Shown: positions 22,506 through 49,466 of the stretch, one piece after another
Position numbering within the stretch: position 1 is the stretch's first letter
How the letters are laid out: each line of letters starts with the position of its first letter
Assembly (NCBI RefSeq): GCF_018283645.1
Contig: NZ_JAGSXH010000041.1
Location: 1 to 49,466, forward strand
DNA from: Actinocrinis puniceicyclus
Lineage (GTDB): Bacteria > Actinomycetota > Actinomycetes > Streptomycetales > Catenulisporaceae
Reading direction: 5' to 3'
Length of the DNA: 49,466 nt
Translations under genes and position numbers: made by a program
The notes under the pieces: model-generated
Told to the model about the DNA's origin: nothing
The model's input: only the letters and a program-made list of their open reading frames with translations
Database searches by the model: none

Positions 22506-23342
22506 CTACCATGGCAACAAGGACAGCGCTTTGGCATCCTTGCGCATCAGCGCGGCGAAGTGGTCCACGATGCGACCGACGGCCGCCGGATCGTGGATCA
22601 CGACACCGATCTCCAAATTGTCGGTATGGGCGCTGTCGGTGAGGTTCGCGCTGCCGAGCATCGCTGCCGTCCGGTCGGCTGCGATGAATTTGGCGTGCAT
22701 CGCTCCGCGGCGTCCGCCGGGCCCGACTCGGCGCTCTGGATTCCACTGCCACAAATGGACGTCGGGATGGAACCGCAGGTCCCGGAAGGTGGCGCGACCA
22801 TCGGCTGAGCCGTGCAATAGACCGCCTGAGGCGACGGCCGTCTCGATGACCAGATCGACTCGGATACCGCGGTTGGCAGCAGCCATGATCTCGCGCTCGA
22901 TCTCGTGGACGCCGAACGCCGCGTAGCTGACGATGAGGAGCGTCCGCTTCGCGGCACGGATGACGTCGACCGCGACCGACGCGGTCAATCGGACGGGGAC
23001 AGCGTCGGTAACTGGTCCCGAGACGGCCACGTCGACTCGACTCATCGCAATGTCATGCTCGTAGCGGGTTCCTGCCGAGTCGAGGGCAAGTGCCACTGCC
23101 TGTCCTGAGGGCAGCGGGTCAGTCGCCATCCACGCGGCCAGCAGCAGCGTTGCGCGTGGACCAAGCCCCGCTCCTGGGTGCGCTGCAATCAGTCTGGATG
23201 CAGTCAGGTCGTCGGGCGTCGTGATTGTTTGAAGAACCCTGATCCAGGCGGCGCGATACGTCGTTGGCAGGTCAGCCGCCAGCGACGCGATAGCAGCCGC
23301 GAGCGACGGTGGGTTTCCCGCCTTAGCGCCGGAGATAGTCAC
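22506..23342 (-). CDS. drmC: DISARM phospholipase-D-like protein DrmC
   Basis: A 278-residue PLD-superfamily protein, last gene of the DISARM operon. One HKD-type motif is clear: His216-x-Lys218-x4-Asp223 in AMHAKFIAADR, followed by GSANLTDSA at 230-238. A strand-helix unit at 134-170 (KRTLLIVSYAAF, IMAAANRGIRVDLVIE) is the normal PLD core. DrmC is the nuclease-like accessory of DISARM, a phage-defence system that distinguishes methylated self DNA; its contribution is reported as less essential than DrmA/DrmB. A single HKD motif implies dimerisation for activity. The GTG start overlaps the drmB stop (GTGA). Confidence 0.92.
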   Translation of the reverse strand: MTISGAKAGNPPSLAAAIASLAADLPTTYRAAWIRVLQTITTPDDLTASRLIAAHPGAGLGPRATLLLAAWMATDPLPSGQAVALALDSAGTRYEHDIAMSRVDVAVSGPVTDAVPVRLTASVAVDVIRAAKRTLLIVSYAAFGVHEIEREIMAAANRGIRVDLVIETAVASGGLLHGSADGRATFRDLRFHPDVHLWQWNPERRVGPGGRRGAMHAKFIAADRTAAMLGSANLTDSAHTDNLEIGVVIHDPAAVGRIVDHFAALMRKDAKALSLLPW

Positions 23343-29516: not shown

Positions 29517-29524
29517 GAATCAGA

Positions 29525-30415
29525 TCAGGCCCAGGTCAGCTCGTCCGTCACGACGGGCCGGAGGCTCTCAAGCTCGTCGAAGACCTGCTGCGCGTTGTCG
29601 ATCACCGTGGTGTTCGGGCGACTCGCATAGTTGCGAGCCCATTCATGTTCGAGGAGTGAGCGCATGAGGAAGACGTGGCGGCCATGTTCCAGTGCGAGGC
29701 GGGCTTGCATGCGGGCACCGCTCCGTTCCAGCGCTTCGATCACCACCGTTGCTAGACAGTATCCGCTCATAATTGCGTTGCGCATCGGAAAGCTGTGCTT
29801 GGTGGGCGGTGCGTCCGGCCAGAATTGTGAGAGCACCAGCCCTTCGTTGGCGATTTGATGTTGAAGGCCGGCGTTCTGCGCAGGATAGGAGCGACGCAAC
29901 CCGGTCCCGATCACGGCAACTGTTCGCCCACCGACGGCGAGGGCCGCGGTGTGCGCCGCCGTGTCGATTCCTTGCGCTAGTCCGCTAGCGACCGTTACAC
30001 CACGCTCAGCGAGTCCCCGAGCAATCTCTGTCGCGTAGTAAACCCCTCGGTCACTTGGGTGCCTCGTACCGACGACTGCGACCGACAGTTCGTCATCGGT
30101 CACAGCTCCGCGAGCGAAGAGGAACGGGGGCTGCTGGTGGACGAGGCGCAGGTTAAGTGGATAGTCCGGATCGAGAACCGTCAGCAGACGCATGCCTTCG
30201 CTCTGCCAGGCACGGACGTCATTGATCGCCGCATCGAGCTCCTTCGAGTCATTCTGGACTTCGAAGAGCGCTTCCTGCCTATCCTCGCCAAGCCCCTCCT
30301 TCATCAGCGCAAGGGCCGAGCCCTTCGCGGCGATCTGCTCGGCGATCTCGGGCCAAGGCGCGCCGCCGCGTCGCACCAGCGCGACCACCGCTGCCTGCTC
30401 CTCGACGCTGATCAT
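29525..30415 (-). CDS. DprA/Smf-like Rossmann (SLOG superfamily) protein
   Basis: A 296-residue DprA-like protein. The Rossmann core is intact: VAVVGTRHPSDRGVYYATEI, VTVASGLAQGIDTAAHTAAL, GGRTVAVIGTGL and YPAQNAGL, then ATVVIEALERSGA. An N-terminal helical stretch of about 85 residues precedes it; no C-terminal winged helix (DML1 domain) is evident. DprA binds single-stranded DNA and loads RecA during transformation; related SLOG proteins bind nucleotide ligands in conflict systems. In a DISARM operon it may sense or protect single-stranded DNA, or bind a signal; this is inference. The promoter at 30422-30449 would give a leaderless transcript from this ATG. Confidence 0.88.
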   Translation of the reverse strand: MISVEEQAAVVALVRRGGAPWPEIAEQIAAKGSALALMKEGLGEDRQEALFEVQNDSKELDAAINDVRAWQSEGMRLLTVLDPDYPLNLRLVHQQPPFLFARGAVTDDELSVAVVGTRHPSDRGVYYATEIARGLAERGVTVASGLAQGIDTAAHTAALAVGGRTVAVIGTGLRRSYPAQNAGLQHQIANEGLVLSQFWPDAPPTKHSFPMRNAIMSGYCLATVVIEALERSGARMQARLALEHGRHVFLMRSLLEHEWARNYASRPNTTVIDNAQQVFDELESLRPVVTDELTWA

Positions 30416-30522: not shown

Positions 30523-32022
30523 CTAGAGGCCCAGTTGCCATCGGATGCTCTGCCGCTTCTGCTCAGCGAAGGAGTTCTGCCACGAGTCCCCGGCTGGTGG
30601 AAGACAATCCTGTGGTGCCAGGTGCACGCCTGGCATCTTGTCGACCGGCACAGTCTTCATGATCAGGTTGAGCAGCGCAATGACCGCTGGCAACGCCGCT
30701 TCAACAAAGCGTTGGGGATCGACGTAGGAGGCGTACTGGATCTCCTGCTTGACACCCCAATGGGCCCGCCCGCCCGTCGCGTCCATCGCGGTGACGATGT
30801 CCTGCGCTTCGCCTGGTGGCAGGCGGACCAGCGGCTCCTGTGAACCATCGCCAGACTGGTGCATCGCTCCCTGAAGCACCTCGGCATGAACCGTGTTGCG
30901 CATCGCGGTCAAGATCTTCAGTACATGCGCCTGATGGCCGCCAGGCTGGACGAGGTCGGCCACCGACTGGTTGGCCCTCGCGACGTCCCGAAGCCAGCCA
31001 GAGCGCTGCCAACCTGCGTTGCTCGACCTGCCTGAGACTCCAAGCACGTCGTGAGCGACACGAGCTGTGACGTCGATCGCTCCCATGCACCCAACCAGCA
31101 GTTCGTCGAGCGCTGTAATCACTTCACTCACGGCATTGTTGCCGTGGTAGGACTGCAGCGAGATGTTCAGCTCATCCCGCTTGATCAATGCTCTCCGAAT
31201 GCGCTCAATAGCCGAAAGAGCCAAACCCTGGAGCTCGTCATTCTTGATCTGTCCAAATGCTGCGCCCCACCGCCACACCTCCGGCAACAGCTCACGAGCG
31301 CCCACCCAGAAATACCCGAGCTTACTGCCCACGAGTGGGAATGTTCCTGACGGCGACTGGATCAGCACGTACTGACTCTGTGCTCTCAAGTAGAGCCCGA
31401 CAAGCGCTAATGCATCGGCTAGCGAGCAAACAGTCACTCCGTGCTGCTTGCTTACAGAGTTCTCGAACAGGTAAGGACGCTCGGTAATGAAGAGGTCGGC
31501 CTGCACACACTCAGCGGCCAGCACGGCAATGGCATCGGCCTCACGGCGACGACGGGCCTCGTCGGAAGGCAACGAACGGTAGGCGGTCGAGCTAACGTCC
31601 CGCTCAGCGGCTTCTACTCGGTTACCAGTAATTCCCGTGTACGTAAAAGAATGAGGTGAATTTGTATATATGATATTGCGCACCTGGTGTGCCGCCTGGA
31701 CATCAGCGAGCACCCAGCCAAGCGGATGTTTTGCGCCATTGGGAAACACATGCCACGGCACGTTTCCCGGGGGACCATCGTCGGCGTATCGATAAAGCGT
31801 GACGAAGTTGTGTGTAAGCAGACCGTTGAGCAGGTATTTTGGAGACCACGGGTCGCTGTCCACTGCGTCTACTAGCTCGGCGTCTGCGACGACGGTAAGT
31901 CGCCGATAGGCCGGTCGCGCATCGAAGAGCCGAGCACCCCGTGAATCGACCGTGCCCAGGTCCGGCCAATCTGCCGCCTTCGAGGCGGCGTGCGAGGAAT
32001 CCTCGAACTTCAACAGCGCCAT
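30523..32022 (-). CDS. Unrecognised 499-residue protein inserted in the DISARM operon
   Basis: The family was not recognised. Visible features: residues 165-215 (AIAVLAAECVQADLFITERP, then GVTVCSLADALALVGLYLRA) resemble the alternating strand-helix end of PIN-like nucleases, where a D-x-x-[IL]-T element is common. Residues 362-385 (HVLKILTAMRNTVHAEVLQG) carry R375-N-T-V-H379, similar to R-x3-6-H elements of HEPN-like helical proteins. Both are only resemblances. The ATG has GAGGAG about ten bases upstream, and drmMI ends 19 bases before it. Codon 205 (31408-31410) is TTA, and the gene is strikingly AT-rich (21 G/C in the 60 bases 31621-31680). An RNase-like effector is one possible reading. 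Confidence 0.85.
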   Translation of the reverse strand: MALLKFEDSSHAASKAADWPDLGTVDSRGARLFDARPAYRRLTVVADAELVDAVDSDPWSPKYLLNGLLTHNFVTLYRYADDGPPGNVPWHVFPNGAKHPLGWVLADVQAAHQVRNIIYTNSPHSFTYTGITGNRVEAAERDVSSTAYRSLPSDEARRRREADAIAVLAAECVQADLFITERPYLFENSVSKQHGVTVCSLADALALVGLYLRAQSQYVLIQSPSGTFPLVGSKLGYFWVGARELLPEVWRWGAAFGQIKNDELQGLALSAIERIRRALIKRDELNISLQSYHGNNAVSEVITALDELLVGCMGAIDVTARVAHDVLGVSGRSSNAGWQRSGWLRDVARANQSVADLVQPGGHQAHVLKILTAMRNTVHAEVLQGAMHQSGDGSQEPLVRLPPGEAQDIVTAMDATGGRAHWGVKQEIQYASYVDPQRFVEAALPAVIALLNLIMKTVPVDKMPGVHLAPQDCLPPAGDSWQNSFAEQKRQSIRWQLGL

Positions 32023-32041
32023 GATTTTTCACGCTCCTCGG

Positions 32042-35000
32042 TCAGAACAGGGAGTCTTCCTGAGGGCCAGAGTTCTTCTTCCCACCTTTACTGTGCAGGC
32101 CGCGGCGGACCTCGTCCTCATAGCGGGCGTGGTTGAGTTCGAGGAGGCGGTCGTTCATCTCAACCTGGATGTCGGGGTCAACGGTCCATCGCAGACCGTG
32201 GGTTGTCTCGTGGAAGCCGTAGTTCAGATCGAGCGGTGTCCAGTTGAAGTGCTTGGCGAGGGGGTCTAGGAGGTATGCCTCCGAGACGGCTTCGTCAATC
32301 TCGACGTGGATCTCACGCAGACGTTGAATGGCGGCATCTTGATTGATCCGGTTATGGACCTCGTTGTAGAGATCGGTCATGCCAAGATCGCAATCAAGCT
32401 GGACCTTACGGCGGAAGTCATCGAGGGCTTCACCAGCCATATTGATGCGCGGTGTCAACTCTGGCCGTGCAAATGTGTCGAATCCATCGGAAGGGGTGTA
32501 GCGAAGTCGATCCTCGAGTGTCGACTCGCCCTTAACCGTCCACCAGTTGAAGTGCCACGTGCTCGTGAGCAGCGCGAGCTGTCCCATCTGGTCTGGGTCG
32601 CAGAAGACGACTAGTGAATCGGAATATACTTGCCCATTCGGAACGAGACACGGCAACCCATACTTGCTATGGCGGCCGATGACTAAGACCCGAGGGAACT
32701 CTGCGATCGCTTTGCGCAACTCTGGGCGCCTGCGATGGTGTTGCCACCAACGTGAAGCTGCACGGTTCCTGTCGTCTTGAGACGGTTGGACTCTCCTCTC
32801 TAGAAGAGAGAAGACGTCAGGAAATTCTTTGGCTGCGTCGATGGACATATCGTTAAAGTCAATCGCGAACTCGTCTCCTGAGCAGTTAGGGTTGCTGTTG
32901 ACATTATCATTAATCAGATATGGGAGTACGACCCTCCTATTTTTACTGTCCGCCGCAAAGAGTTCGTGGGCCTGTGCGGCGTCAATCACAAATGTTGAGC
33001 GCACTTGGTATCCATTAGGAGCTTTTCCTGCATTGGCAGCTAGCCCATGAGGCGCACCTGGCACGCGCGTAGGCCTAGTCAAGTTGGAGGAGATAGACTC
33101 GACCACTTTGCCATCAAGGATAGTTTTCTCGCCAGTGCCTTGTTTCCCCAACCATACTAGCGATACATATACGCTTGCTACGCCAGGCCAGGGTTGAGAT
33201 TTGGTTGCCCGAAAAATTCTCCAGCCGCGAGCAGCGATCCGGTCAAGGCCCACTTCTTTCGAATCATTCTGCGCGATCGTATTGACTGCAATGATTCCAG
33301 TACGCTGCGCTGGGGCAATTTTAAGATTGCGTAATAAGAAATACGTGCACAGGTCGGCCCGACCTCCAGATGTGAAGCCATTGGCGACCACCTGGCCGAT
33401 GTAGCTCAGCCTGTCCTTACCAATTCTGCCGCCGATATCGGTACCCGCGATGAACGGTGGGTTGCTGACAACGGCGTCAAAGCGGTGCTCGCCTCGGCGC
33501 GGGTCGGCGACGATCTCTGGGAATTCGAGTGGCCAGTGCAGCGGGCGCAGTGGGGCTTCGCGCGGGCGTTCACGTGGGCCGCGAAGCCAGCCATCGATGA
33601 TCCTCCGCGCCGCGGTCTCCGCGCCTACATCCCCCCCTAGCGCCTTCTCAACGAGATCCGCGATAGAGGCGAGGCGGTCATTATAGGCGTCTGCTGACTT
33701 GAGCGATGCAGTAGAGAGCTTTGCACCCACGACGGCATCCGCAGAGAGTCGCAGTCGCTCAGTCAGCGCGTCGGCCTCCTCAAGCTTTGCAGCCTTCTCG
33801 CGTGCGTCGCGAATGTCGAAGACTTCGTGCTCTTCGATCTGGCGACGAAGCTCAGCTGCGCGCAACAACAGCGGCCCAGTGACTTTGTCGATCTCGCCGG
33901 ACAGCCGGTGGTTCAGCCTGCGGCCTTCGGCGGGCTTCAGGTGGAACGCCTCGATCTGTTCGGATGTGAGGCACCCGATTAGCGAGTCGCCACAGCGTAA
34001 TGCGTGGTCTACGAAGTTGAAAGGCCGGCCCTTCGCGAGCGTTACGATCCACAATGAGAGCTTCGCGAGCTCGACAGCCATCTCGTCGATATCGACCCCG
34101 TACAGGCATCGATCTGCCACCATGCGGCGCGCCTCCAGCAGGCGCGCGTCGTGATCGTCACGCTGGTCGCCGAGCCGGTCGTCGATCGCGCGTGGCAAGC
34201 CGTCTCGGTCCCATGCCTCAACGACGCGTTCAGACAGATACCGGCAGGCGGAGACAAGGAACGCGCCCGAACCCATTGCCGGGTCCAGAACCTTGAGCGC
34301 GAGTAGTTCCTCGGCCGGGCGCACGGACCATTCAGTTGGCTGCGTTCCGTCCGCGTTCCGCGGAAGACCATCCGGGGAGCCGGGCGAGAAGCACAGCGGA
34401 TCGAGCGTGTGTACCACGATCTCTTCGGCGAGTGCTCGGGGTGTGTAGTGCGTCCCCGTATCGCGGCGGTCTCCCACCTGCGCGATGATTACCGTTCCGG
34501 CCGGGTGCACGATCGGTTCGCCGCGAAGATCGACGCGCAGCAACCCGAAATACGGTAGGACGCGGGCTGCAATTTCCGCCTTGTTGTCGCAGGCCGCGTC
34601 GAGCATCGCAGTATCGGCGCCGGTCGGCTGGATCGCAAGCGCCCTGGCGTATTGCGGTGCTGTCAATCCGGCGAGCGCACGAACTTCCGTGTCAAGTTTG
34701 CCAGCGACTTGCCACGCTTCTAGGGCGGCCAGGCTGGCTTCGGCCTGCTTCTTGCCCTTGAGCGCGAGGTGGGTCTCGTCGAGCCGGACCGCAGAGTATT
34801 CGAGTAGGCCCTCGTAGACGTGCCCGATCTGCTCGACGTCCAAGCCCTTGTACGACAATCGCTCCGTCGACGTGACGGTATCCCCGTTGGTCCGCTTCAG
34901 TTTGATGAGCGCGTCGAGAATTGCGAACACGACCCGGTCGGTGATCGCAACGCTCTCCAGCCAGGGAAATCGGGTCGGGTCGAAGAGCGAACCTCCGTAG

Positions 35001-36103
35001 GCGGGGATCCACATGTCCGGGTGCCGCGCGCCGCCGTGTACGGCGCGGAAGGTGGCCAGCAGTGCTGGCCAGGCGGCCTGCCAGCGGTCGGCGATGGCGC
35101 CGTCGCCTAGGTCTAGTCGTTCGTACAGATTCATGATCGAATAGGAGTCCGCATACAGTTCGTCCCCGAGCGGCAGGAGGTTCTGCTCCTCCGCATACAG
35201 CAGGAACACCACGCGCATCATGACGGTCAGCGCGCCTCGGTAGATGGTGCGCGGCTCGACGCCCGCGAGCATCTGGCCATATGAATCCCGGTCAAGACGG
35301 GAGAGTTCCGCGACCAGCAGTTGGACGGCTTCGCGGACCTGGCGCCCGAGGGTCTTGGTGACGCTGGTGGTGTCTTCGGCGGTCTTGGCGAAGAGCGCGG
35401 CGAGCGAGTCTGTGTCCGTGCCGTCGCGATTTCTCGGGGAAGCGGCGGCATGCCTACTGCCGAGCAATGAGACGAACGCGCGTAGGATCATCGGCTCGTC
35501 GAACCATGTGTCAGCGTCGAACTCGGCGACCGTGGCCGGCTCCTTCGAGCGGGCATGCACGAGGGTCCACAGTCGGCCGTTGGTGAGCAGCGCAATCGGG
35601 ATGGCGCGGCGTCGGCACAGCTGCGCGGCCTGCTCTGCGAGCGACGGCAGGCCCTTGGCGGCGCGGGTCAGTGACTCGTTCCAGGGGCGGCGGTAGATCA
35701 GTGCCCGTTCGGCCAGTCCGGACATACCCGTGGCCGGGTCGGCCGGCCCCATGAGGACCGCGTCGGGAGCCGTTCCGCCGTCTGCGTTGGCACCGGCGGT
35801 GAGTTCCCGGGGAAGCATCGAGCCTTGGCGAAGCGCCTGGCCTCGGTAGCCAAGCACTTCGTCGAGAACCAGGTGCTGCCAAGCGCGGTTCAGCGTCGCC
35901 GGGTCAGCCTCAAGCTCCGCCCACGCCTGCCGCAGCCGAGTACGCAATGGCGTCTCGACGGTGTCGAGACCCTGTGGGAAAGCGTCCGCGAGGAATTTCG
36001 CGGAGATGAAGGGGCCGTCAGGGCGCAGTAGGTTCAGCCACTCGGCGTGCTGGTCGATGGTGTTCTGCAGCGTCGACACGGTGGCGCGGGCGCGCGGGGG
36101 CAT
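32042..36103 (-). CDS. drmMI: DISARM class 1 adenine-specific DNA methyltransferase DrmMI
   Basis: A 1353-residue Eco57I-type N6-adenine methyltransferase. The SAM-binding motif LKVLDPAMGSGAFLVSACRY is near residue 608, preceded by GTHYTPRALAEEIV; the catalytic NPPF motif is at 881-884 in AVVSNPPFIAGTDIGG. Large N-terminal (about 550 residues) and C-terminal (about 420 residues) regions flank the core, as in BREX/DISARM-type enzymes, and probably read DNA sequence. It marks host DNA so that DISARM spares it. TGATG overlap with drmD. Codons 923-924 (33332-33337) are two consecutive TTA codons in the stretch encoding TYFLLRN, and the surrounding 32600-33400 is AT-rich. Confidence 0.93.
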   Translation of the reverse strand: MPPRARATVSTLQNTIDQHAEWLNLLRPDGPFISAKFLADAFPQGLDTVETPLRTRLRQAWAELEADPATLNRAWQHLVLDEVLGYRGQALRQGSMLPRELTAGANADGGTAPDAVLMGPADPATGMSGLAERALIYRRPWNESLTRAAKGLPSLAEQAAQLCRRRAIPIALLTNGRLWTLVHARSKEPATVAEFDADTWFDEPMILRAFVSLLGSRHAAASPRNRDGTDTDSLAALFAKTAEDTTSVTKTLGRQVREAVQLLVAELSRLDRDSYGQMLAGVEPRTIYRGALTVMMRVVFLLYAEEQNLLPLGDELYADSYSIMNLYERLDLGDGAIADRWQAAWPALLATFRAVHGGARHPDMWIPAYGGSLFDPTRFPWLESVAITDRVVFAILDALIKLKRTNGDTVTSTERLSYKGLDVEQIGHVYEGLLEYSAVRLDETHLALKGKKQAEASLAALEAWQVAGKLDTEVRALAGLTAPQYARALAIQPTGADTAMLDAACDNKAEIAARVLPYFGLLRVDLRGEPIVHPAGTVIIAQVGDRRDTGTHYTPRALAEEIVVHTLDPLCFSPGSPDGLPRNADGTQPTEWSVRPAEELLALKVLDPAMGSGAFLVSACRYLSERVVEAWDRDGLPRAIDDRLGDQRDDHDARLLEARRMVADRCLYGVDIDEMAVELAKLSLWIVTLAKGRPFNFVDHALRCGDSLIGCLTSEQIEAFHLKPAEGRRLNHRLSGEIDKVTGPLLLRAAELRRQIEEHEVFDIRDAREKAAKLEEADALTERLRLSADAVVGAKLSTASLKSADAYNDRLASIADLVEKALGGDVGAETAARRIIDGWLRGPRERPREAPLRPLHWPLEFPEIVADPRRGEHRFDAVVSNPPFIAGTDIGGRIGKDRLSYIGQVVANGFTSGGRADLCTYFLLRNLKIAPAQRTGIIAVNTIAQNDSKEVGLDRIAARGWRIFRATKSQPWPGVASVYVSLVWLGKQGTGEKTILDGKVVESISSNLTRPTRVPGAPHGLAANAGKAPNGYQVRSTFVIDAAQAHELFAADSKNRRVVLPYLINDNVNSNPNCSGDEFAIDFNDMSIDAAKEFPDVFSLLERRVQPSQDDRNRAASRWWQHHRRRPELRKAIAEFPRVLVIGRHSKYGLPCLVPNGQVYSDSLVVFCDPDQMGQLALLTSTWHFNWWTVKGESTLEDRLRYTPSDGFDTFARPELTPRINMAGEALDDFRRKVQLDCDLGMTDLYNEVHNRINQDAAIQRLREIHVEIDEAVSEAYLLDPLAKHFNWTPLDLNYGFHETTHGLRWTVDPDIQVEMNDRLLELNHARYEDEVRRGLHSKGGKKNSGPQEDSLF

Positions 36104-39100
36104 CAGGCGGCTCCGTGCGTGGCAAGGGAAGCGGGGACGAGGAACGTGACCGCGACGGGGAAACGGCGAGCGACCGGGTCGGCGTAGCGGTGACGTAGCG
36201 CGGCGGTCTCGGTCTCCAGTTGCGCCGGGATCGCATCCAGCCGTTTGGCGAGCTCAACTCGGTCGCTCTTGAGCTGCTCGCGCTGGTCGTCGACGGTGAA
36301 GAGGCTGCCCTGCTCCCAGTACGGACGATCGTCGAGCTTGGCCCTGATGGAGCGTTCCAGTTCGGTGAGTACTGCGCGCATGGCGGTGACGTCCTCCTCG
36401 CATCGCCTGTCGAGGATCTTGCTCTCCTTGCGGACGACGCGATTGGACTCTGTGGCGAGTGCTTTGCCGAGCGGTTTTTCCAGCACCGGCCATAGGTCGA
36501 CGAACTGGGAGAGCAGCTGTTCAGGTGGTACGGACTGATTCGCTGCGGAGAGCCATCGTTCGAGTGTGTCAGAGTCCTTCTGGGTGAGCCTGCCCAGTTC
36601 TATGGGGCCACCGGCGAGCACGATCTGCTCATGTAGACGCACGCCGCGGTTGCCGGTGATCACAACACGGCCATGTGCGATGACAGCAGGTGTGCGAAGT
36701 AGGTCGCCGGGGACGATGCGCGCAGTGACACGCGTCAGACGAGCGCCGCGGCCGTGCTGGGACCATAGTTCCGCGCGAAGCAGTCGCAGGCACATGTCCA
36801 CGAGGCGATGGCCCAGGTGAAGCAGGACGACGTCAGTGCGGCCAGCGTAGTCTTGGTCAAAAGTGACAGGTCGCTCCTTGCCGGTGACCGGGTGGCGCAG
36901 GCCGTCGTTGCGGGCCTGCGCCCACGAAGCGGGAAGCTCTGGAAGCTTGAAGCAGCGTGCCGACACGTCACGCGGCGCTGCAGCGTCGGTCAGGTCCTTC
37001 TTGTGGGCGAGGCGCAGCGCCGTGCGCACGACGCGTTCGATCGTCTCCGGTGACAGGTGTAGATCTGTGCGCGACTCGGTTAGTTGCTGCTGTGCCTGCG
37101 CTAGATCGTGCGCGAGGTCTCGCTCGATCCTAAGCACGGCCTTCCCGGCTCGGGCCGCGATCTCCTTGTCGGTGGTCTGCCAGCTCGTGCGGCGGCCGAG
37201 CATCTTCTGCTCGACCTGCGAGGCGATCACCTCACCGGCGCTGCCGAGGTCGGTGCGGATCTGGTCCACTTTGCGCACCGCTACGCCGAGGAACGCAAGT
37301 GCGTCCTCGATCGTGCCGTCCTCGAAGCCGGTGTCCTCACCGTCACCGTTTTGGTCCCAGCTCCTGGGCACGAAGTGCACGATTTCGACCTTCGAGGCGC
37401 GCTGGCCGTGGCGGTCGACGCGTCCATTTCGCTGCTCCAGACGGTTCGGATTCCACGGGATCTCCCAGTGCAGCACCCGATGGCAGTAATTCTGTAGGTT
37501 GATACCTTCGCTCGCTGAATCGGTCGCGAGCAGGATCCGCACCGGATCCGCGTCCAGCGGCTCCTGGAAGACGTTCTTGACGGCCTCACGGTCTTCGAGT
37601 TCCTGGCCACCGTAGAGTTGTGCGATCACATTGGTCGGCACGCGCGCGGTGTTGACCAGCCGGTCGTAGAGCCACCGCTGGGTGTCGCGGTACTCGGTGA
37701 AAACGATGACACGGTCGCCGTCCCAGTGCTCTCCATCTGGCTGGACGATTCCGCGCAGCCAGCCGAGGAACGCCGCGAACTTATCGTCGGCCTTGTCCGC
37801 GTTCTTCAGGCCCCAGTCACGCAGCTTCTCCAGCAGCGCGCGCTCGGCAGCGGATAGAGGCGGCGCGACCCGACGTGCAGCTGTCAACGCCTCAGCCGCG
37901 GCCTCGGAGTAGGCCACGTCGTCCTCAGCGGTCTCTTCCAAACGCTCGATCAAAGTTCTGAGGACCTGCTCACCGATGGATCGCACTCCGCGCGAGTACT
38001 GCTGGTCGGCCTCCTGCGTCTCACGTGCGGTCATCGTGTCCAGATGCGCCTGGACCGTTTCCGCGAACGCCTTCGGGCTCGACAGGAAACGGCGTTTGAG
38101 CAGCTTGACGACGAAGTCGGTGGCCGCCTGCTCGGCTTTGTCCGTGCCGGCGCTCTCTTTGCGCAGCTGCGCGTAGTGGGTGAGTTCCGCATACGCCGCC
38201 TGCGCATCAGCGCCGTAGGAAACCTCCAGCGGATGGTCGAGGTCCCGTTCCGGGAAGCGGGGCCGGCCCGCCCAGTCCGGCGGCAGATCCCGCTTGAGGC
38301 GACGCACCATGACGTGCGCCTTCGCCTCCTCCGAGGGCGGCACGTTGCGCGCGAATCGCTGGTTGTCGAGCAACTCGAGCAACGCGGTGAACGATTCTAG
38401 GTAGCCATTGTGCGGAGTCGCCGAGAGGAACAGCCTGTGTTCAGTGTGCGGGGCCAGCTCCCGGATCGCCCTGGTGCGCTGCGAGTCGACGGCATACTGG
38501 CCGATACCTGACGGAGCGCAGGTGTGCACCTCGTCGACGACCATGAGATCGAAGACGCGCGGGTACTCGGGCGTGGCGGGCAGGATCGAGCGCAGCAGCG
38601 CGAGCGGGCGGTCCCGTTTGAGCCAGTCGATCGACACGATCAGCCGCGGATAATGCGTCCATGGGTTTGCGTACAGGCCCCGTGACCGGCGTAGTTCTTT
38701 GAGCAGCGTCGCATCGACAATACGGAAAGCCAGGCCGAATTTGTCGCGCATCTCGTCGCGCCACTGGAGGGTTAGCGACGCCGGACAGACAATCAGCATG
38801 GTGCGGGCCCGATGGCGCAGCATCAGCTCCTGTATCACTAATCCGGCTTCGATCGTTTTGCCGAGGCCGACGTCGTCCGCGATCAGCAGATTTGTCCTGG
38901 GCATCCGCAGCGCCCGCACGACCGGGTCGAGCTGATAGTCCTCAGGCTTCACACCGGAGCGGAACGGCGCCTGTAGGACCGTCTTGTCGGCAGTTGCGAC
39001 CGCACCCCACCGCACCGCGTCCAGGAAGGCATCGAGCTTCGCCGGGTCGTCGAATCCTTGGACGGGGGAGGGCAGCACATGCTGCTCGCGGGCCACCGCG

Positions 39101-39378
39101 CCGGGTTCCAGCTCCCACAGAACCCGCAGCTCCTCATCGCCCGTATCGCTGTCGACACTGACCAGCGAAACAAGGTGCTGGGCCTCGGCGATCAGCGGGC
39201 TGCCCGGCTTTTCGGCCGTGATCGACGATCGTTCCACGGCGGTCGCGACCCACTGTCGATTACGGACCGTCACCAGCTGGCCGACGGCCGGCACGCTGGA
39301 ATCGTTCGAGAACACGTCTGCCTCGTCGAGCAGTTCAGCGCTCACCTGCGTCAACTCCCGCTCCCGCGCCCCGGACAC
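36103..39378 (-). CDS. drmD: DISARM SNF2-like helicase DrmD
   Basis: A 1091-residue RapA/SNF2-like ATPase. Walker A is DDVGLGKTIEAG near 168-179, the DEVH box at 282-285 (VVDEVHTCAP), motif III FLSATPHNGYLESF, and the C-terminal lobe has VIVFTEYRDTQRWLYDRL, LLATDSASEGINLQ and QRNGRVDRHGQ. The long C-terminal region (about 700-1091) is helical and lacks known motifs. DrmD together with DrmMI defines class 1 DISARM. It starts with GTG three bases after the DUF262 gene. Codon 180 (38839-38841), directly after Walker A in AGLVIQE, is TTA. Confidence 0.93.
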   Translation of the reverse strand: MSGARERELTQVSAELLDEADVFSNDSSVPAVGQLVTVRNRQWVATAVERSSITAEKPGSPLIAEAQHLVSLVSVDSDTGDEELRVLWELEPGAVAREQHVLPSPVQGFDDPAKLDAFLDAVRWGAVATADKTVLQAPFRSGVKPEDYQLDPVVRALRMPRTNLLIADDVGLGKTIEAGLVIQELMLRHRARTMLIVCPASLTLQWRDEMRDKFGLAFRIVDATLLKELRRSRGLYANPWTHYPRLIVSIDWLKRDRPLALLRSILPATPEYPRVFDLMVVDEVHTCAPSGIGQYAVDSQRTRAIRELAPHTEHRLFLSATPHNGYLESFTALLELLDNQRFARNVPPSEEAKAHVMVRRLKRDLPPDWAGRPRFPERDLDHPLEVSYGADAQAAYAELTHYAQLRKESAGTDKAEQAATDFVVKLLKRRFLSSPKAFAETVQAHLDTMTARETQEADQQYSRGVRSIGEQVLRTLIERLEETAEDDVAYSEAAAEALTAARRVAPPLSAAERALLEKLRDWGLKNADKADDKFAAFLGWLRGIVQPDGEHWDGDRVIVFTEYRDTQRWLYDRLVNTARVPTNVIAQLYGGQELEDREAVKNVFQEPLDADPVRILLATDSASEGINLQNYCHRVLHWEIPWNPNRLEQRNGRVDRHGQRASKVEIVHFVPRSWDQNGDGEDTGFEDGTIEDALAFLGVAVRKVDQIRTDLGSAGEVIASQVEQKMLGRRTSWQTTDKEIAARAGKAVLRIERDLAHDLAQAQQQLTESRTDLHLSPETIERVVRTALRLAHKKDLTDAAAPRDVSARCFKLPELPASWAQARNDGLRHPVTGKERPVTFDQDYAGRTDVVLLHLGHRLVDMCLRLLRAELWSQHGRGARLTRVTARIVPGDLLRTPAVIAHGRVVITGNRGVRLHEQIVLAGGPIELGRLTQKDSDTLERWLSAANQSVPPEQLLSQFVDLWPVLEKPLGKALATESNRVVRKESKILDRRCEEDVTAMRAVLTELERSIRAKLDDRPYWEQGSLFTVDDQREQLKSDRVELAKRLDAIPAQLETETAALRHRYADPVARRFPVAVTFLVPASLATHGAA

Positions 39379-39381
39379 TGA

Positions 39382-41457
39382 TCAGGACATCTTTTCACTT
39401 ATTGACTCGTCACCCAGGTCAAGCAACGCCGCGAGCGCAGGCGCAGAGAGTCGCTGCTTCGGCTCGGCGGCGTCGTTGCCGTTGAAGCGCACACCCTCGT
39501 CACGCAGGATGTCCAGGACGTTCCCACGATCCTCACCCATCCACCGGAACCCGGGAGACACCCTGCCGTCGGACGTCAGGACACGATGCGCATTCGCGAC
39601 ACCGGTCGTCTGGGCAAGGTGGGCTCCGACGGGCTGCGCGGCCGAGCCGATAAGCGCGGCCAGATCGCCGTAACTGGTCCATGCACCAGGTGGCAAGATC
39701 GCGAGCGCCTGATGCAGCAGCGACCAGTCACGCCCGCGCTCTACCCGCCCAACTCCGGCGACCGGCGAGGGCCACAGGATCGAGGCGGTTTGCGCCAGGA
39801 CCTTGGCCCGCTGCTCGATCTCGGTGGCGCCCCAGCGGGGTGCTTCCGCAATCCGCCGGTTCATCTCCAGATGACTGGCCTTGAACAGGTCCTGCTTGCG
39901 CTGGAAGGGATGGTTGGACAACTCGCTGTTCTGTGCCGTCAGGGTCAGGTTGCCGAGTGTGTGCACCAGCCTGCGGTGGGTCTCAGCCGGCGTCTCCCCA
40001 TCGATTGCATCCTCGGCGAGAACTGCGAGCCACTCCTTGCTCGCCCCCTGCGGAAGCACATGCTCGACGGTCAGCTTCGCCGTCACGAAGTCCACCGGCT
40101 CCGGGTGGTCGTAGGACTCCTCCAGGCGGCGCAGCACGAACTGCCGCTGGTGGCCGCGGCCGTACAGGTAGAACGGCTTTGTGCGGATCGCGTCGAGCAG
40201 TTCCGCGTCGTCCGGCCATGAACGCCGCTCACCCGAGAGCACCTTGCGCACGCCCTCATCCACCAGCATGTCGGCAGGCAGTTGACCTGGCAGGTCCTGG
40301 AAAATCCGGTTGAGGCCGTTGGGCGGCACCCGGCAGATCATCCGGCGCACCAGGAAGCTCTCGATGTACGTGAGCGCCTTCGCTACCTGCTCGCTGGTTG
40401 CCTCGCCACGCTCCCGGCGATCCAGCAACAACATGATCGCGGGCGCAGGAGTGTCCGCGTCCCATGCACGGAGGCGCCAGAGCGCGCCGCGCACCGCGGC
40501 GTCGGATTCACGATTCGGATCGATCAGCGTCAGGTAGTGTACGGAACGCCTGCGCAGTTCTCGGACCCAATCCTCGTATGTGTCTTCGGTGTCGGGTTGC
40601 TGTTCGAATCGAACTTGCCGTTCCCGGTACACGTCCTGGCGCCGCACCCGGTTGGCTCCTGAGAGGATGAGTTCGAGCCAGATCAGGTCTTCAAGCAGCT
40701 TCGGATCGTTCACGCTCTTCTGGAGCGGAGTCCACAGTGTCTCGTAAACATGCTCGCCACGGGTGGGCAGGTGCATGAACACGTAGTTGCGCACGAGGTC
40801 GGTCTGGCTAAGTTCGAGGCCAGTATTATTGAGTGACTGGAAGATCCGATAGACGTTGTCCCCCGTGCCTGCGGCGATCTCGACGAGCGTGAGGCGCGAT
40901 GTGATCGCTTCCTCAATGTGCTGGATCGAGTGCGTGTCTGCAGGGTCCTCAGTGGCGGCGAGCGCTGCGCGGAAGAAGCGATAGGCGGCGCCGACTCGGG
41001 AATCGTCGTCGAGCGCGGCTATACCGTTGATGTGCGCGGAGTACACGGCGCGGTCGACCTGGGTCGGGACCAGGCGCAATAGGTTAGATCCCTGGGTACG
41101 GGAGTTGACAAGGAAGCGGTTCGAGATGTCGTGGGCCCACGCGGCGTCAGCCTTTGCGACATGGTCTCGGATAGCGGCGAGAGCCAGCGAGAGCGTGGTG
41201 AGCCGCTGCTGGCCATCGACGACCAGCGCATGTGGAAAGCCCATCGAATGCTGTGGTGAGGGCGCGTGCACCACGGAACCGAGGAAGTGGGCAGAGCCCG
41301 CGGAGCCCTCTGCAATGAGGTCAGCCTGTTCAAGAATGTCGCTCCAGAGCTGGGTGAGCTGCTGCTCCTTCCACGAGTACGGACGCTGGAATAGCGGCAC
41401 CTGGAACTGCTTCTTGCCTTCCAGCAGCCCGGCCAAGGTTGTTTCGCCCGCGCGCAT
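39382..41457 (-). CDS. GmrSD-like DUF262-DUF1524 (HNH) protein fused to an alkyltransferase-like domain
   Basis: A 691-residue fusion. DUF262: VPLFQRPYSW at 20-29 and DGQQRLTTL at 81-89, the ParB-like nucleotide-binding signature of type IV GmrS-type proteins. DUF1524/HNH: VEHVLPQ near 461-467 and HTLGNLTLTAQN near 500-511, the His-Asn nuclease core. C-terminal MGMT-like domain from about 575: PPGAWTSYGDLAALIGSA, then ANAHRVLTSDGRVSPGFRW. At the position of the PCHRV acceptor cysteine it reads NAHRV, so the domain can bind but not repair alkylguanine, as in alkyltransferase-like proteins. GmrSD-type enzymes cut modified DNA. It is three bases before drmD, so it is the first gene of the operon. 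Confidence 0.9.
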   Translation of the reverse strand: MRAGETTLAGLLEGKKQFQVPLFQRPYSWKEQQLTQLWSDILEQADLIAEGSAGSAHFLGSVVHAPSPQHSMGFPHALVVDGQQRLTTLSLALAAIRDHVAKADAAWAHDISNRFLVNSRTQGSNLLRLVPTQVDRAVYSAHINGIAALDDDSRVGAAYRFFRAALAATEDPADTHSIQHIEEAITSRLTLVEIAAGTGDNVYRIFQSLNNTGLELSQTDLVRNYVFMHLPTRGEHVYETLWTPLQKSVNDPKLLEDLIWLELILSGANRVRRQDVYRERQVRFEQQPDTEDTYEDWVRELRRRSVHYLTLIDPNRESDAAVRGALWRLRAWDADTPAPAIMLLLDRRERGEATSEQVAKALTYIESFLVRRMICRVPPNGLNRIFQDLPGQLPADMLVDEGVRKVLSGERRSWPDDAELLDAIRTKPFYLYGRGHQRQFVLRRLEESYDHPEPVDFVTAKLTVEHVLPQGASKEWLAVLAEDAIDGETPAETHRRLVHTLGNLTLTAQNSELSNHPFQRKQDLFKASHLEMNRRIAEAPRWGATEIEQRAKVLAQTASILWPSPVAGVGRVERGRDWSLLHQALAILPPGAWTSYGDLAALIGSAAQPVGAHLAQTTGVANAHRVLTSDGRVSPGFRWMGEDRGNVLDILRDEGVRFNGNDAAEPKQRLSAPALAALLDLGDESISEKMS

Positions 41458-44573: not shown

Positions 44574-47500
44574 CTACGCATCCCTCCCGGGACGCATGAT
44601 CCACGCGACCAGCTTGATGCGTTCGCACGCCTCGTGGTCGGGCACGTGGTAGGTGCCCGCGACGGTGTCGCGGGCCACTTCGAGCAGGTCGTCGACGAGT
44701 TGCTGGTCGGCTGCCGAGATCGGTCGTGGCGTATCGGCGGGTGCAGTGCCTGCCGCGTGGGCATCGATCCAGTCGCCGGGCTCGATGTGGATCGCTTCCA
44801 GACACCGGACGGTGTCCAGGAGGGTGGCCCCTCGCCGTGCGCCGCCGTAGACCCGGCAGAAAAGTGTGATCGTCGGCCCGGCCTCGGTGCCGACGACGCT
44901 GAAACAGTAGACCACCAACGGCTCGTCGGCGGGCTGCGGGTGCACAGCGCAGGCCCACGGGGTCAGGTGCTCAAGGCGGGCGGCGAGGGCGGGAATCATG
45001 CGGGCGCGTTGCAGCCACATCCGCTGCATCTCGATCATGGGCAGCGGTCGGGAAGCCTTCTCGGTGCGCGGCGTGTAAATCCATCCGATGAGGGTCGTGA
45101 AATTCATGATGTTGACGGTGGCGTCGGGCAACAGCGCCGCAGTCACTCCGATCAGCTTGGCCGCGACCGCAGTCTTCTCCAGCAGCTTGTCCATGAGGCA
45201 CAACCACGCGTCCAACGCCCGGTCAGGCAGGAAGGTATGGCAGTCGATGACAGCGTGCGGCGAGCCGATCCGGTCCAAACGCCCAAGCCGCTGTTCCAGC
45301 CGGGTCGGGTTCCACGGCAGGTCGTAGTTGACGATCACGTTGGCCTGCTGGAGGTTGACCCCTTCGGACAGGATGTCGGTGGTGATCAGCACGTCGTAGA
45401 GGTCTTTCGGCTTGGTCTGCCCAAGACGGGTCGGGACTCCGGCAGCGGTGTCTGGGCAGAAGTGGCCGAGCACGGTGGCCAGCTCCTTCTTCGAGACTGG
45501 TTCGGTGCGCCCGACACTGGCGATGCGTCCGGCGTAGCGGTGCACCGTGCCTCTCGCCGCGATGTGTGCCTCGATGCGGGCGGTAAGGTCCGCGCTGGTG
45601 ATCCGGGAGCTGGCGAAGACCACGACCTTGCCGCCGAGCTCGTCGAACAGGTTGAGGAACGCGGCGGCCTTCGGGTCATCGCGGCAGGCCTGTTCAGCCA
45701 GCGCGACGATCCGCTCGAGCGCCTCGGCATCGCGCTGCAGGGCCTGGCGCAGGGCAGGGACGTCATACTGGGTGGCCAGCTGGAAGCGGGCCTTGGGGAT
45801 TCCGCCTTGGGGACCGCAGCGGGCCTGGCCTCCAAGGAAGTCGCTTAGGCGTGCGTCCAGTTCGTCGCGCCCGATCTGCCCGTCCAGCTCGTCCCCGGCC
45901 CCGTCGATCCACGTGCGCACCAGGTCACGCAGCAACCGCATCTCCTTCATTGACACGCTGATGCGTACCCGACCCCGATCCAGGTCGACCAAGGCGCTCT
46001 TCGTGCGCCGGGCCATGTTGCGGGCGGTATCGGCCAGCGCCGCCGGCGAGGACTCCAGGCGTTTGAGCAGCGTGCAGCGCAGCAGGCACAACAGCACCTC
46101 GACCCACCACGGCACCTGCAGGGGGTCGAGCGCGTACTGCCCCGGCGCGTAAGCCGCCAGTGCCAGCGGGGCGGACAGAGCCTGCGGGCCGCGCAGGGCG
46201 CGCATTGCCTCTGCGAAGCGCGGGTCGCTCAGAGCCTTGGATGTCGCCGCCGCGTCGAGCACCGCGGAGTACAGGTTCGTGCCCGCGTCGGCTAGCTCGT
46301 AGATCACAGGCTTGGAGTTGACCACGGGGAACGCCGGACGCTCGATCCCTTCGTGGCACGCGTCGCGCACATATTGCCGGGTGCGGCGTACCACCAGGTC
46401 GTTGATCTCCTCGTGCAGCTCGCGCAGTTCGCGTTGCTGCAAGGTCAGCGCCTTGGAGCAGCGCTCACGGATCTGGCGCTGCGAGAGTCGCCGCCCCGGC
46501 CACGGCGCCCATCCGGGGGTGTACACCCGGTCCTCGATGGGAGCCGGCGCGGCCAGGTGCATCAGCTCGGCCAAGTCGGCGCCCTTGTTGTTGACCGGAG
46601 TTCCGGACAGCAGCACCGTGCGCGGCCGGTGTTCCTGGTCGCCCATCAGCTTGTCGAAGCATTTGCGCGTCAGGTTGCGGCGGTTGCGCAGGAAGTGCGC
46701 CTCATCGCACACGACCATCGCGTACGTCGGGAACGCGGCGCCTGATCGCAGCGTCTTCATGCCCCGCCACAGCAGTTGGTGGTAACTGAGAAGCTCCACC
46801 TTGAGGCCCCACTCGTTGGTCTTCGCCCGCCACACATTGCGCTTCAGATGCGCGGGGCACAGCACCAGGACCGGGCCCTCCCCGGCGCGCTGGGCGCGGT
46901 CGATCAGCTCGCCTGCGATGTAGGTCTTGCCGAGACCGACCTCGTCGGCGACCAGGACGCCGCCGCGCCGCTCGATCACGGCTGCCGCCTTGGCGACTCC
47001 CAGAGACTGGAACCAGGTCAGGCCCAGGCGCGAGTCGCCCGCGTCAATCTCCCCGCAGAACCGCTCGGCCAGCATCCGCAGGTACACCAGTTCCGGGGGC
47101 AGATACGCGAATCGTTCGCTGATCATTCCCGCCAGGTCGTACGGCGCAGCGGCCTTCCACCAGTCGCGCACCCACCTGGCCGTCCCCGCCGCCTGCTCGC
47201 GCCCTGCGCTGACTCCGAGTTCGACATTCGAGCGCAGTCCCGCCCGTGTCAGGTTGAAGGAGCCGACCACGGCCTCCACCGGCCGGTCGACCGGTTCGAT
47301 CACGACGGCCTTGGAATGGAAAAACTCTGCTTCGTAGCGGCGTGTTGTCACCAGAGGGTCGGATAGCCATGCGCGAAGACGGGACAGCTTCGCGCGCGTC
47401 GCCTTGTCCACCGGGATGCCGTCCAGTTCAGCGTGTAGGGCGAGATGCCCCTCGGCCAGCAGGCGGTCCAACTGTTCGGGATCGGCGCTCCCGTCGAGCG

Positions 47501-47753
47501 TGATCTGCGCGGTGGCGGTCGGGGCGACGCCTAGCAGCAGGCGCACCGGCACGCCCCGCGCGATCAGGACCTGCACCGCCTCGCCCAGCACCATAAGCCC
47601 ATGGAAGCTGACATAGCCTGCGGCCAGGGTCGCGACCGCCCCGTGTGGATCAGCGGCCACCGCCCGAAGCCAAGCATCCAGCCTGCGCCCGATCGTCGCG
47701 CCGCCGCCGTTAACCAGAATCAGCGGGGCGGGCCAGGGCCGGGTGCCAGTCAC
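44574..47753 (-). CDS. PLD-nuclease/SNF2-helicase fusion protein
   Basis: A 1059-residue fusion. Residues 1-200 form a PLD-type nuclease domain with one HKD motif (His146-x-Lys148-x4-Glu153 in [13 protein letters not shown]) and GSFNLTRAG at 164-172. The SNF2/RapA-like ATPase follows: Walker A DEVGLGKT at 270-277, DEAH at 350-353, [46 protein letters not shown] and [13 protein letters not shown] near 821. The arrangement combines in one chain what DISARM divides between DrmC and DrmD. Its GTG overlaps the DUF262 gene (GTGA), so the pair is co-translated. A DNA-translocating nuclease used in defence is the likely role. Confidence 0.9.
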
Positions 47754-49369
47754 GCGACCGCCAGCTGCGCGGGAACTGCTTCGCGCGCGTCGCGGCGCAG
47801 CGGCTCGGTCTCACGCAGGAAGGTGTTGACCATCTCAAGGATGGCGGCGCTGCGCCGCACGATTTCGGCGTCGACGTCCAGCGCCGGGACGGGCCTGGCC
47901 AGGCATTGAGCAGCCAGTGCTGCATCCGGACAGTCCAGTGCGTCGTAGGCGTCGCGCCCCCACCCGCGCGCGCCCTCCACAACCGCCGCGGTGTCTGGGG
48001 TCATCCAGGCCAACCAGGCCACCGTCCGGTGACGCCCTGGTTCAGCCGCCCACAGGGGGCGCAGCCGCATCCGCGGATCGCTCATCGTGACATGGGGGTC
48101 GCCGAGGTCCGTTACCTTGCCCGCGACACCAGCATGGCTGGCCAGCGCGAATAGCGTCCCCGGCTGACCCCAGGTGGCCCGAGCCCGCCCCCCGAGTTGG
48201 AGCGTGCTCTCGTCCCACGGCGGGATTGGTCCAGCCGGAACCTGCAAGGCGAGGGCACCGACCGCATCACGGTAATTCGCCGCGCCGGCGACGGCACGGG
48301 CATCGGCGCGATGCCTGGAGCCGAGCGTGTGGTAGGTGCCGCGGGCCGCGATGTGCACCAGCCAGCGCCCGGCGAAGTCGTCGCATGCCGCCTCGTCGCA
48401 AAACCGGGCGAACAGCACTCCCAGCACCTCCACCGCGCTGGGAGAGCAGAGCAGCTCATCGCCGGTGATCCCGCACGCGTGCAAGAGGTCGGCCGTGGCG
48501 GCGCACCCCTGCGCCGCCAGCGCGGCCGCGTCGGCGATGCGCGCCGGGTCGATGCGGCGGCGGTTGGCAACCCGCGTCGCCCCCGGGGGCAGCAAGTGCT
48601 CCATCACGGTGACGATGCGTGGGCGGCCGATCGCGGCCGGAAACCCCGCCTGGGCGGCGGCGTGCACCGCAGGGTCGATGATGTCGCGTTGCAGTCCCGG
48701 GCAGGTCATGCTCAGCGCCACCAGCCTGTACTCCTCCGGGGTCAGGCGCTTGGAGGCGCTGGCCTGGTTGTGCCGGATGAACGCCGTGACAGCCTTGTCC
48801 ATGTCCCCGCGTAGCCAGTCCACCCTCACGCGCACCGCCAGTAGCCGTTGGGCCAGCGCGGCGAAGCGTTCGACGTACCGGTGCGGGTCGTACACCCCCG
48901 TGCCCACGATCAGCCGTTGCACCGTGCTGGTTTCCGCGGCCTGCAGCAGGTCGGCCAACCGAATCTGCAGCGGCGTGCCCGGCTTGTAGGGGTGGAAGGA
49001 GAACTGGCCGATGAGCGTGAACCGCACCGCTACCTCCCGGTCCGGGCCGCCGAGCATGAGCCATCTGCGCTGCGGGATCCACGGCGGGCGCCGACCAAAG
49101 GCGGCCAACACCGCGGTCAGACGCTGCTGCCCGTTGATGATCCACCAGTCGGCGTGGGAGGACGACTGGTAGCGGCTGGCCGGACGCGAAGAGCGGGCGT
49201 CCACCTCGTAGAGCAGCGGGGCGCCGAACGGGATCTCCTGGAACAGCGAGTCGATGATTCCCGCGCACCACCGGGCGCTGGCGACGAGCTCACGCTGCAC
49301 CTCGGGAACGTCGAAGCGCTCGGCGAGATCGAGAAGCTGACGGATCGTGAACTCGGACTGCTCGGCCAC
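47750..49369 (-). CDS. DUF262 domain-containing protein
   Basis: A 539-residue protein with the DUF262 ParB-like signature [14 protein letters not shown] near residues 78-92, preceded by [20 protein letters not shown] and [11 protein letters not shown]. No DUF1524 HNH nuclease motif was found in the rest, so cleavage would depend on the coupled PLD-SNF2 partner. DUF262 domains bind nucleotides and are found in modification-dependent restriction (GmrSD) and related systems. GTG 49369 was chosen because AGGAGG lies four bases upstream (49374-49379); an in-frame GTG at 49447 is possible. It overlaps the next gene by GTGA. The window ends 97 bases upstream, so a further upstream gene cannot be excluded. 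Confidence 0.85.
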
Positions 49370-49466
49370 ACTGCCTCCTGCGATCGTGAGGATGTCGCGG
49401 CTCGTGCTTCCCGGTCCCCGCCTCGGTTCAATCGCGTCGGCCCGCACCGCCCACCCGCCCCTGTCG

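What the first reader, a model, noticed from the sequence alone, without database searches (positions are those of the whole stretch)
39382..41457. DUF262-HNH nuclease fused to a cysteine-less alkyltransferase-like domain
GmrSD-type proteins cut modified DNA. Here the C-terminal MGMT-like domain keeps the fold motifs but has NAHRV where the acceptor cysteine PCHRV should be. Alkyltransferase-like proteins that lost this cysteine bind O6-modified guanine without repairing it, so the fusion may read base modifications and direct cleavage, adding modification-dependent restriction to methylation-based DISARM.
Basis: partly seen in the sequence, partly recalled or inferred. Interest (0 to 1): 0.75.

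Follow-up and report, generated by a model that had tools for sequence, protein, structure and literature searches.

The report
Restriction nuclease with repurposed DNA-repair domain
This bacterial gene encodes a DNA-cutting enzyme of a known anti-phage family joined to a piece of a DNA-repair protein that has lost its repair chemistry; the same disarmed piece turns up on several other kinds of defence nuclease in actinobacteria, so it probably helps choose which DNA is cut, but what it recognises is unknown.

Summary
ORF 39382-41457 (-) encodes GmrSD_N (residues 9-227), GmrSD_C/HNH (414-556) and an MGMT/ATL-like domain (about 574-680) reading N622-A-H-R-V where MGMT has PCHRV; the domain has no cysteine. 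The architecture was reported in one sentence in 2015 (PMC4619093). New here: (1) Cys loss is a family trait: 0 Cys at that position in 110 nuclease-linked domains. (2) The predicted fold is nearest the Cys-less ATL Atl1 (Z 11.9). (3) The base-flipping Arg finger that defines ATLs is also lost (Gln/Val in most; Gln608 here) and the pocket Pro is Asn, so this is a derived module, not a standard O6-alkylguanine sensor. (4) The module forms one lineage, shared by GmrSD, GmrSD-RAMA, PD-(D/E)xK-RAMA, HNH and McrB-type proteins, nearly all in Actinomycetota. (5) It recurs beside DISARM: 14 of 16 genomes of the order that hold both have them within about 30 kb; in the window the gene ends 3 bp before drmD. 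Most likely the module is an exchangeable DNA-reading domain for a Type IV-like nuclease (confidence 0.5). Modification reading is inferred; O6-alkylguanine specificity is unlikely.

The parts
39382..41457 (-). gmrSD-ATL gene, 691 aa
   Evidence: ORF; relatives align from residue 1; Pfam
40777..41433 (-). GmrSD_N (DUF262) domain, residues 9-227, motifs QR24-25 and DGQQR81-85
   Evidence: Pfam 6.1e-32; invariant motifs
39790..40218 (-). GmrSD_C (DUF1524, HNH) domain, residues 414-556, E465-H466, H499, N503
   Evidence: Pfam 8.6e-29; invariant motifs
39418..39738 (-). Cys-less ATL-like domain, residues 574-680
   Evidence: Pfam 2.3e-7; AF2 mean pLDDT 82; Z 11.9 to Atl1-DNA 3gx4
39580..39594 (-). 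NAHRV motif (residues 622-626) in place of PCHRV; Ala623 at the acceptor-Cys position
39634..39636 (-). Gln608 at the Arg-finger position (R128 in human MGMT, R39 in Atl1)
   Evidence: profile alignment to Atl1; Q 55, V 36, R 7 of 110
39670..39672 (-). Tyr596, the conserved base-flipping Tyr (Y114 in MGMT, Y25 in Atl1), kept
   Evidence: 109 of 110
39541..39552 (-). GFRW (636-639), F-x-W signature of the nuclease-linked domains
   Evidence: F 106/110, W 106/110; standalone relatives mostly have F at the W position
36103..39378 (-). drmD, start 3 bp after the gmrSD-ATL stop
   Evidence: NF038317 1257 bits; junction
32042..36103 (-). drmMI
   Evidence: PADLOC 1392.6 bits
25207..28719 (-). drmA
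   Evidence: NF038325 1324 bits
23339..25210 (-). drmB
   Evidence: PADLOC 4.5e-76
22506..23342 (-). drmC (PLD)
   Evidence: PADLOC 4.5e-97

Best explanation
The gene encodes a single-chain GmrSD-family nuclease, probably a Type IV-like or accessory restriction enzyme, whose C-terminal domain is a repurposed alkyltransferase-like fold serving as an exchangeable DNA-reading module. Shown by computation: intact nuclease motifs, ATL-like fold, Cys and Arg finger lost, one lineage shared between nuclease classes, recurrent DISARM linkage. Inferred: the module contacts DNA through its winged helix and keeps a pocket built around Tyr596, Phe637, Trp639 and Arg625; it licenses HNH cleavage when it meets its target, which is more likely an unusual or modified base than a sequence; the target is not the mark made by the neighbouring DrmMI, since that would cut host DNA; in DISARM islands it adds a second, independent layer against DNA that escapes DISARM.
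For: Nuclease motifs invariant; the full-length model matches DndI 9jfl (Z 20.5), SspE (about 20) and BrxU (11.5), all modification-related GmrSD relatives. The domain model is closest to Atl1-DNA 3gx4 (Z 11.9, 94 residues, 2.7 A) and to V. parahaemolyticus ATL (10.8), ahead of all MGMTs (9.8 or less). In GmrSD proteins the same C-terminal slot is filled by ATL, RAMA or DUF5655, and RAMA and ATL occur together in some. The module is shared with PD-(D/E)xK-RAMA, HNH and McrB-type proteins and lies on one side of a 100/99 branch away from housekeeping MGMT/ATL. Precedent: winged-helix domains fused to many nucleases read N6-methyladenine (PMC11037411). Linkage to DISARM: 16 genomes with both against 6.2 expected, Fisher p 3.2e-5, 14 of 16 within about 30 kb.
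Against: No DNA-binding or cleavage data exist. Arg finger lost; the window's helix-turn-helix-to-motif core has net charge 0 and the domain pI is 5.85, against pI 8.06 for the standalone relatives sampled, so DNA contact through this domain may be weak. Three divergent members even lose parts of the core motif (L018, L021, L023). Whether the pocket is open was not examined in coordinates. The DISARM statistics do not correct for shared ancestry or for general clustering of defence genes.
Confidence: 0.5

Rival explanations
1. The domain is a general DNA anchor: a winged helix that binds DNA without reading a modification, raising affinity or placing the HNH domain, while target choice lies in the GmrSD core.
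For: GmrSD proteins without any such extra domain exist here (L034, 611 aa) and BrxU, whose solved chain matches only the GmrSD core of this protein, cleaves several cytosine modifications (PMC12409352). Loss of Cys, Pro and Arg finger fits loss of pocket chemistry.
Against: Pocket-side residues (Y, R, V, GFxW, E/D) stay nearly invariant, more than a plain anchor needs; the domain is acidic; it takes turns with RAMA, a suggested reader, in the same slot.
Confidence: 0.25
2. The domain is a protein-interaction module, like the docking of ATLs to UvrA/UvrC, tying the nuclease to a partner such as DISARM or repair proteins.
For: ATLs bind UvrA and UvrC (PMC10779285); low charge; recurrent DISARM neighbours.
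Against: Most carriers have no DISARM (43 of the 59 genomes with the module in the order lack a DrmD) and the module sits on unrelated nucleases with different neighbours, so no constant partner is seen.
Confidence: 0.13
3. The domain is a true O6-alkylguanine sensor, so the enzyme cuts alkylation-damaged DNA or phage DNA carrying O6-modified guanine.
For: ATL-like fold, Tyr and Glu/Asp kept, Cys absent.
Against: The Arg finger, listed as conserved in ATLs and MGMTs (PMC10779285), is kept in only 7 of 110 and is Gln here; the motif Pro is lost in all 110. The same genome already has an ATL with finger and PWWRV (L005) and two PCHRV MGMTs (L003, L004).
Confidence: 0.08
4. The domain is an active alkyltransferase using another cysteine.
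For: A CxxC lies just before the motif in the sister classes.
Against: The window's domain has no Cys and CxxC is absent in 91 of 91 of its class; W-to-C in E. coli ATL does not restore activity (PMC10779285).
Confidence: 0.01

Closest known systems
GmrSD homologues with DNA_binding_1 (Machnicka et al. 2015, PMC4619093)
   Same: Same three Pfam families in one protein, seen there mainly in Streptomyces
   Different: That paper gives it a few lines; no mention, in the text searched, of Cys or Arg-finger loss, of other nucleases sharing the module, or of DISARM
BrxU, DndI and SspE (GmrSD family)
   Same: DUF262 and DUF1524 core; best full-length structural matches
   Different: Matches cover residues 1-573 only; the ATL-like domain is not part of the match
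Alkyltransferase-like proteins (S. pombe Atl1, Vibrio ATL)
   Same: No acceptor Cys, same fold, Tyr and C-terminal L-x-x-E-G-V element
   Different: No Arg finger, Asn for Pro, Ala in place of the usual Trp, extra GFxW motif, fused to a restriction nuclease
Archaeal ATL-EndoV and AGT-EndoV fusions (PMC10779285)
   Same: Alkyltransferase fold fused to an endonuclease
   Different: Repair enzymes with EndoV, not restriction nucleases with HNH
Winged-helix fusion nucleases such as DpnI and HhiV4I (PMC11037411)
   Same: One DNA-reading domain combined with many nuclease types
   Different: Different winged-helix family, reading N6-methyladenine

Membership tests
GmrSD (Type IV) nuclease | DUF262 and DUF1524 domains with QR, DGQQR and HNH motifs | tested here: met
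   Pfam; invariant residues; structural match
GmrSD (Type IV) nuclease | Cleaves modified DNA | not testable with these tools
   Needs enzyme assays
Alkyltransferase-like protein (ATL) | Alkyltransferase fold without acceptor Cys | tested here: met
   Z 11.9 to Atl1; 0 of 110 Cys
Alkyltransferase-like protein (ATL) | Base-flipping Tyr | tested here: met
   Tyr596; 109 of 110
Alkyltransferase-like protein (ATL) | Arg finger | tested here: not met
   Gln608; R in 7 of 110, against 19 of 20 standalone relatives
Alkyltransferase-like protein (ATL) | Binds O6-alkylguanine | not testable with these tools
   Needs a binding assay
MGMT/AGT | PCHR[VI] acceptor cysteine | tested here: not met
   NAHRV; no Cys in the domain
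DISARM class 1 (neighbouring locus) | drmD, drmMI, drmA, drmB, drmC in one locus | tested here: met
DISARM class 1 (neighbouring locus) | GmrSD-ATL is a constant component | tested here: not met
   15 of 31 genomes with DrmD in the order lack the module

The most novel reading that the evidence does not exclude
The Cys-less, finger-less ATL module is an undescribed class of modified-base reader, possibly for guanine, used by at least five kinds of actinobacterial defence protein and recurrently paired with DISARM, so that phages which modify their DNA to escape methylation-based defence are cut by the companion nuclease.
Probability: 0.3. Interest if true: 0.8.

Novelty: new variant of a known kind. 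Interest (0 to 1): 0.58.

Why it matters
How GmrSD-family enzymes recognise their targets is unknown, and the ones tested act on cytosine modifications (PMC12409352). A separable domain of known fold that can be deleted, swapped and assayed makes target choice testable, and would add a repair-derived fold to the short list of modification readers (PUA/SRA, winged helix, suggested RAMA). Its repeated presence beside DISARM suggests layered defence.

Tried and rejected
DISARM linkage first looked unique to the window, because neighbourhoods of about 10 kb around 16 and then 78 relatives held no complete DISARM set; a scan for DrmD over 293 genomes of the order, the same draw as by its handles, overturned that and I corrected it. 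No relative in viral contigs or phages; one plasmid. Bacteroidota (198 genomes): the matches listed are open frames of about 100-310 aa, so standalone ATLs, no nuclease fusion seen. Pfam finds no family in the roughly 160-aa extension that many relatives carry after the ATL domain. Papers on McrBC/CoCoNuTs, EVE domains, BREX and YprA helicases do not mention the module. Net charge alone is a weak test in actinobacterial proteins.

Full report
Observation. The ORF at 39382-41457 (-) is 691 aa. Pfam finds GmrSD_N (9-227, 6.1e-32), GmrSD_C (414-556, 8.6e-29) and DNA_binding_1, the MGMT C-terminal domain (583-639, 2.3e-7, above cut-off). The acceptor motif is NAHRV (622-626). The domain has no cysteine; C375 is the only one in the protein. 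The nuclease motifs are intact and invariant.

Fold. AlphaFold2 on the domain with 102 aligned sequences gives mean pLDDT 82. The best structural matches are ATLs, not MGMTs: Atl1 bound to DNA 3gx4 (Z 11.9, 94 residues, 2.7 A), Vibrio ATL 2kif (10.8), then MGMTs at 9.8 and below. A sequence profile of the domain ranks the PDB the same way: Atl1 3.2e-14, Vibrio ATL 3.1e-13, MGMTs from 3.1e-9. The full-length model (mean pLDDT 84.8) matches DndI, SspE and BrxU over residues 1-573 and Atl1 over 574-672.

Residues. In 110 nuclease-linked domains the acceptor position is Ala 101, Gly 3, Pro 3, Val 2, Thr 1, never Cys; the preceding Pro is Asn in 82 and Pro in none; the Arg finger is Gln 55, Val 36, Arg 7; Tyr is kept in 109, the motif Arg in 109, and a new GFxW motif in about 106. 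In 20 standalone relatives the finger is Arg in 19 and Cys is present in 13. ATLs are described as lacking the Cys but keeping the finger and Tyr (PMC10779285), so the module meets part of the ATL definition and fails one defining feature. I therefore call it ATL-derived.

Spread. The architecture is common: about 18 relatives spanning the domain region in 394 genomes of the class, 59 of 293 genomes of the order carry the module in some form, and 78 loci came from genome contigs, nearly all Actinomycetota (the scan pattern was itself built from actinobacterial sequences). The same module occurs with other partners: GmrSD_N + GmrSD_C + RAMA + ATL (L066, L088, L102); a PD-(D/E)xK-type nuclease, with weak NucS_C hits and a D...ELK motif, plus a RAMA-like domain (hhalign 79%, P 1.6e-5); an HNH_2-like protein (L114, below cut-off); and McrB-like AAA proteins (L059, L041, L044, and L214 next to DISARM). 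In a tree the nuclease-linked domains lie on one side of a 100/99 branch of length 1.12 from housekeeping MGMT and ATL, together with a few short actinobacterial proteins, and the GmrSD label needs at least five changes, so the module has moved between nucleases (few columns, many open forks). In GmrSD proteins the slot holds ATL, RAMA or DUF5655.

Prior work. Machnicka et al. 2015 state that PF01035 occurs in several GmrSD homologues, mainly from Streptomyces (PMC4619093). Searches of the held library found nothing on the Cys-less state or the wider use of the module.

DISARM. The window holds drmD, drmMI, drmA, drmB and drmC; the GmrSD-ATL stop is 3 bp before the drmD start. In 293 genomes of the order, 59 have the module, 31 have DrmD, 16 have both (6.2 expected, Fisher p 3.2e-5). 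In 14 of the 16 they lie on the same contig within about 30 kb. Arrangements differ: 3 bp apart on one strand (window), with a PDC-M02 pair between (G944; the same gene order in G885), on the opposite strand downstream of drmC (G801), 16 kb away (G758), or with the McrB-type carrier instead (G752). Relatedness and general clustering of defence genes are not corrected for. Most carriers have no DISARM, so the coupling is recurrent but optional.

Mechanism. The best-supported reading is an exchangeable DNA-reading domain on a Type IV-like nuclease. What is read is unknown. O6-alkylguanine in the ATL manner is unlikely because the finger is gone and the genome already has a housekeeping ATL (PWWRV, L005) and two MGMTs. 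The neighbouring DrmMI mark should not be the target, since the host carries it (inference).

Noticed in passing
L064, L066, L072, L086, L087, L088, L089, L091, L099, L102, L107, L112, L114, L134, L135, L136, L068: An invariant CxxC just before the NAxRV motif in the sister classes (6 of 6 PD-(D/E)xK-RAMA, 8 of 8 GmrSD-RAMA, also L112, L114, L068), absent in 91 of 91 of the window's class; no obvious further metal ligands.
   Followed up: partly
window 28716-30415 (-): A DprA/ShosA-like gene and a weakly ShosT-like phosphoribosyltransferase-like gene sit inside the DISARM operon between drmMI and drmA, beside an unassigned 499-aa gene (30523-32022).
   Followed up: no
window 44574-49447 (-): A PLD plus SNF2 helicase gene overlapping by 4 bp a second, divergent DUF262-type gene: probably another two-gene defence system.
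   Followed up: no
G000 contig C370, about 31075-34347: A second DrmD homologue (61-67% identical) in the same genome.
   Followed up: no
L088 16114-16767 (-): A full-length MGMT-like protein with IPVHRV, Val in place of the acceptor Cys.
   Followed up: no
L154 742-1818 (+): DUF429 fused to an alkyltransferase-like domain with PSHRL, Ser in place of Cys, Arg finger kept.
   Followed up: no
L056, L058 and most Streptomyces relatives, after the ATL domain: A C-terminal extension of about 160 aa with no Pfam family, missing in the window and in its nearest relatives.
   Followed up: partly
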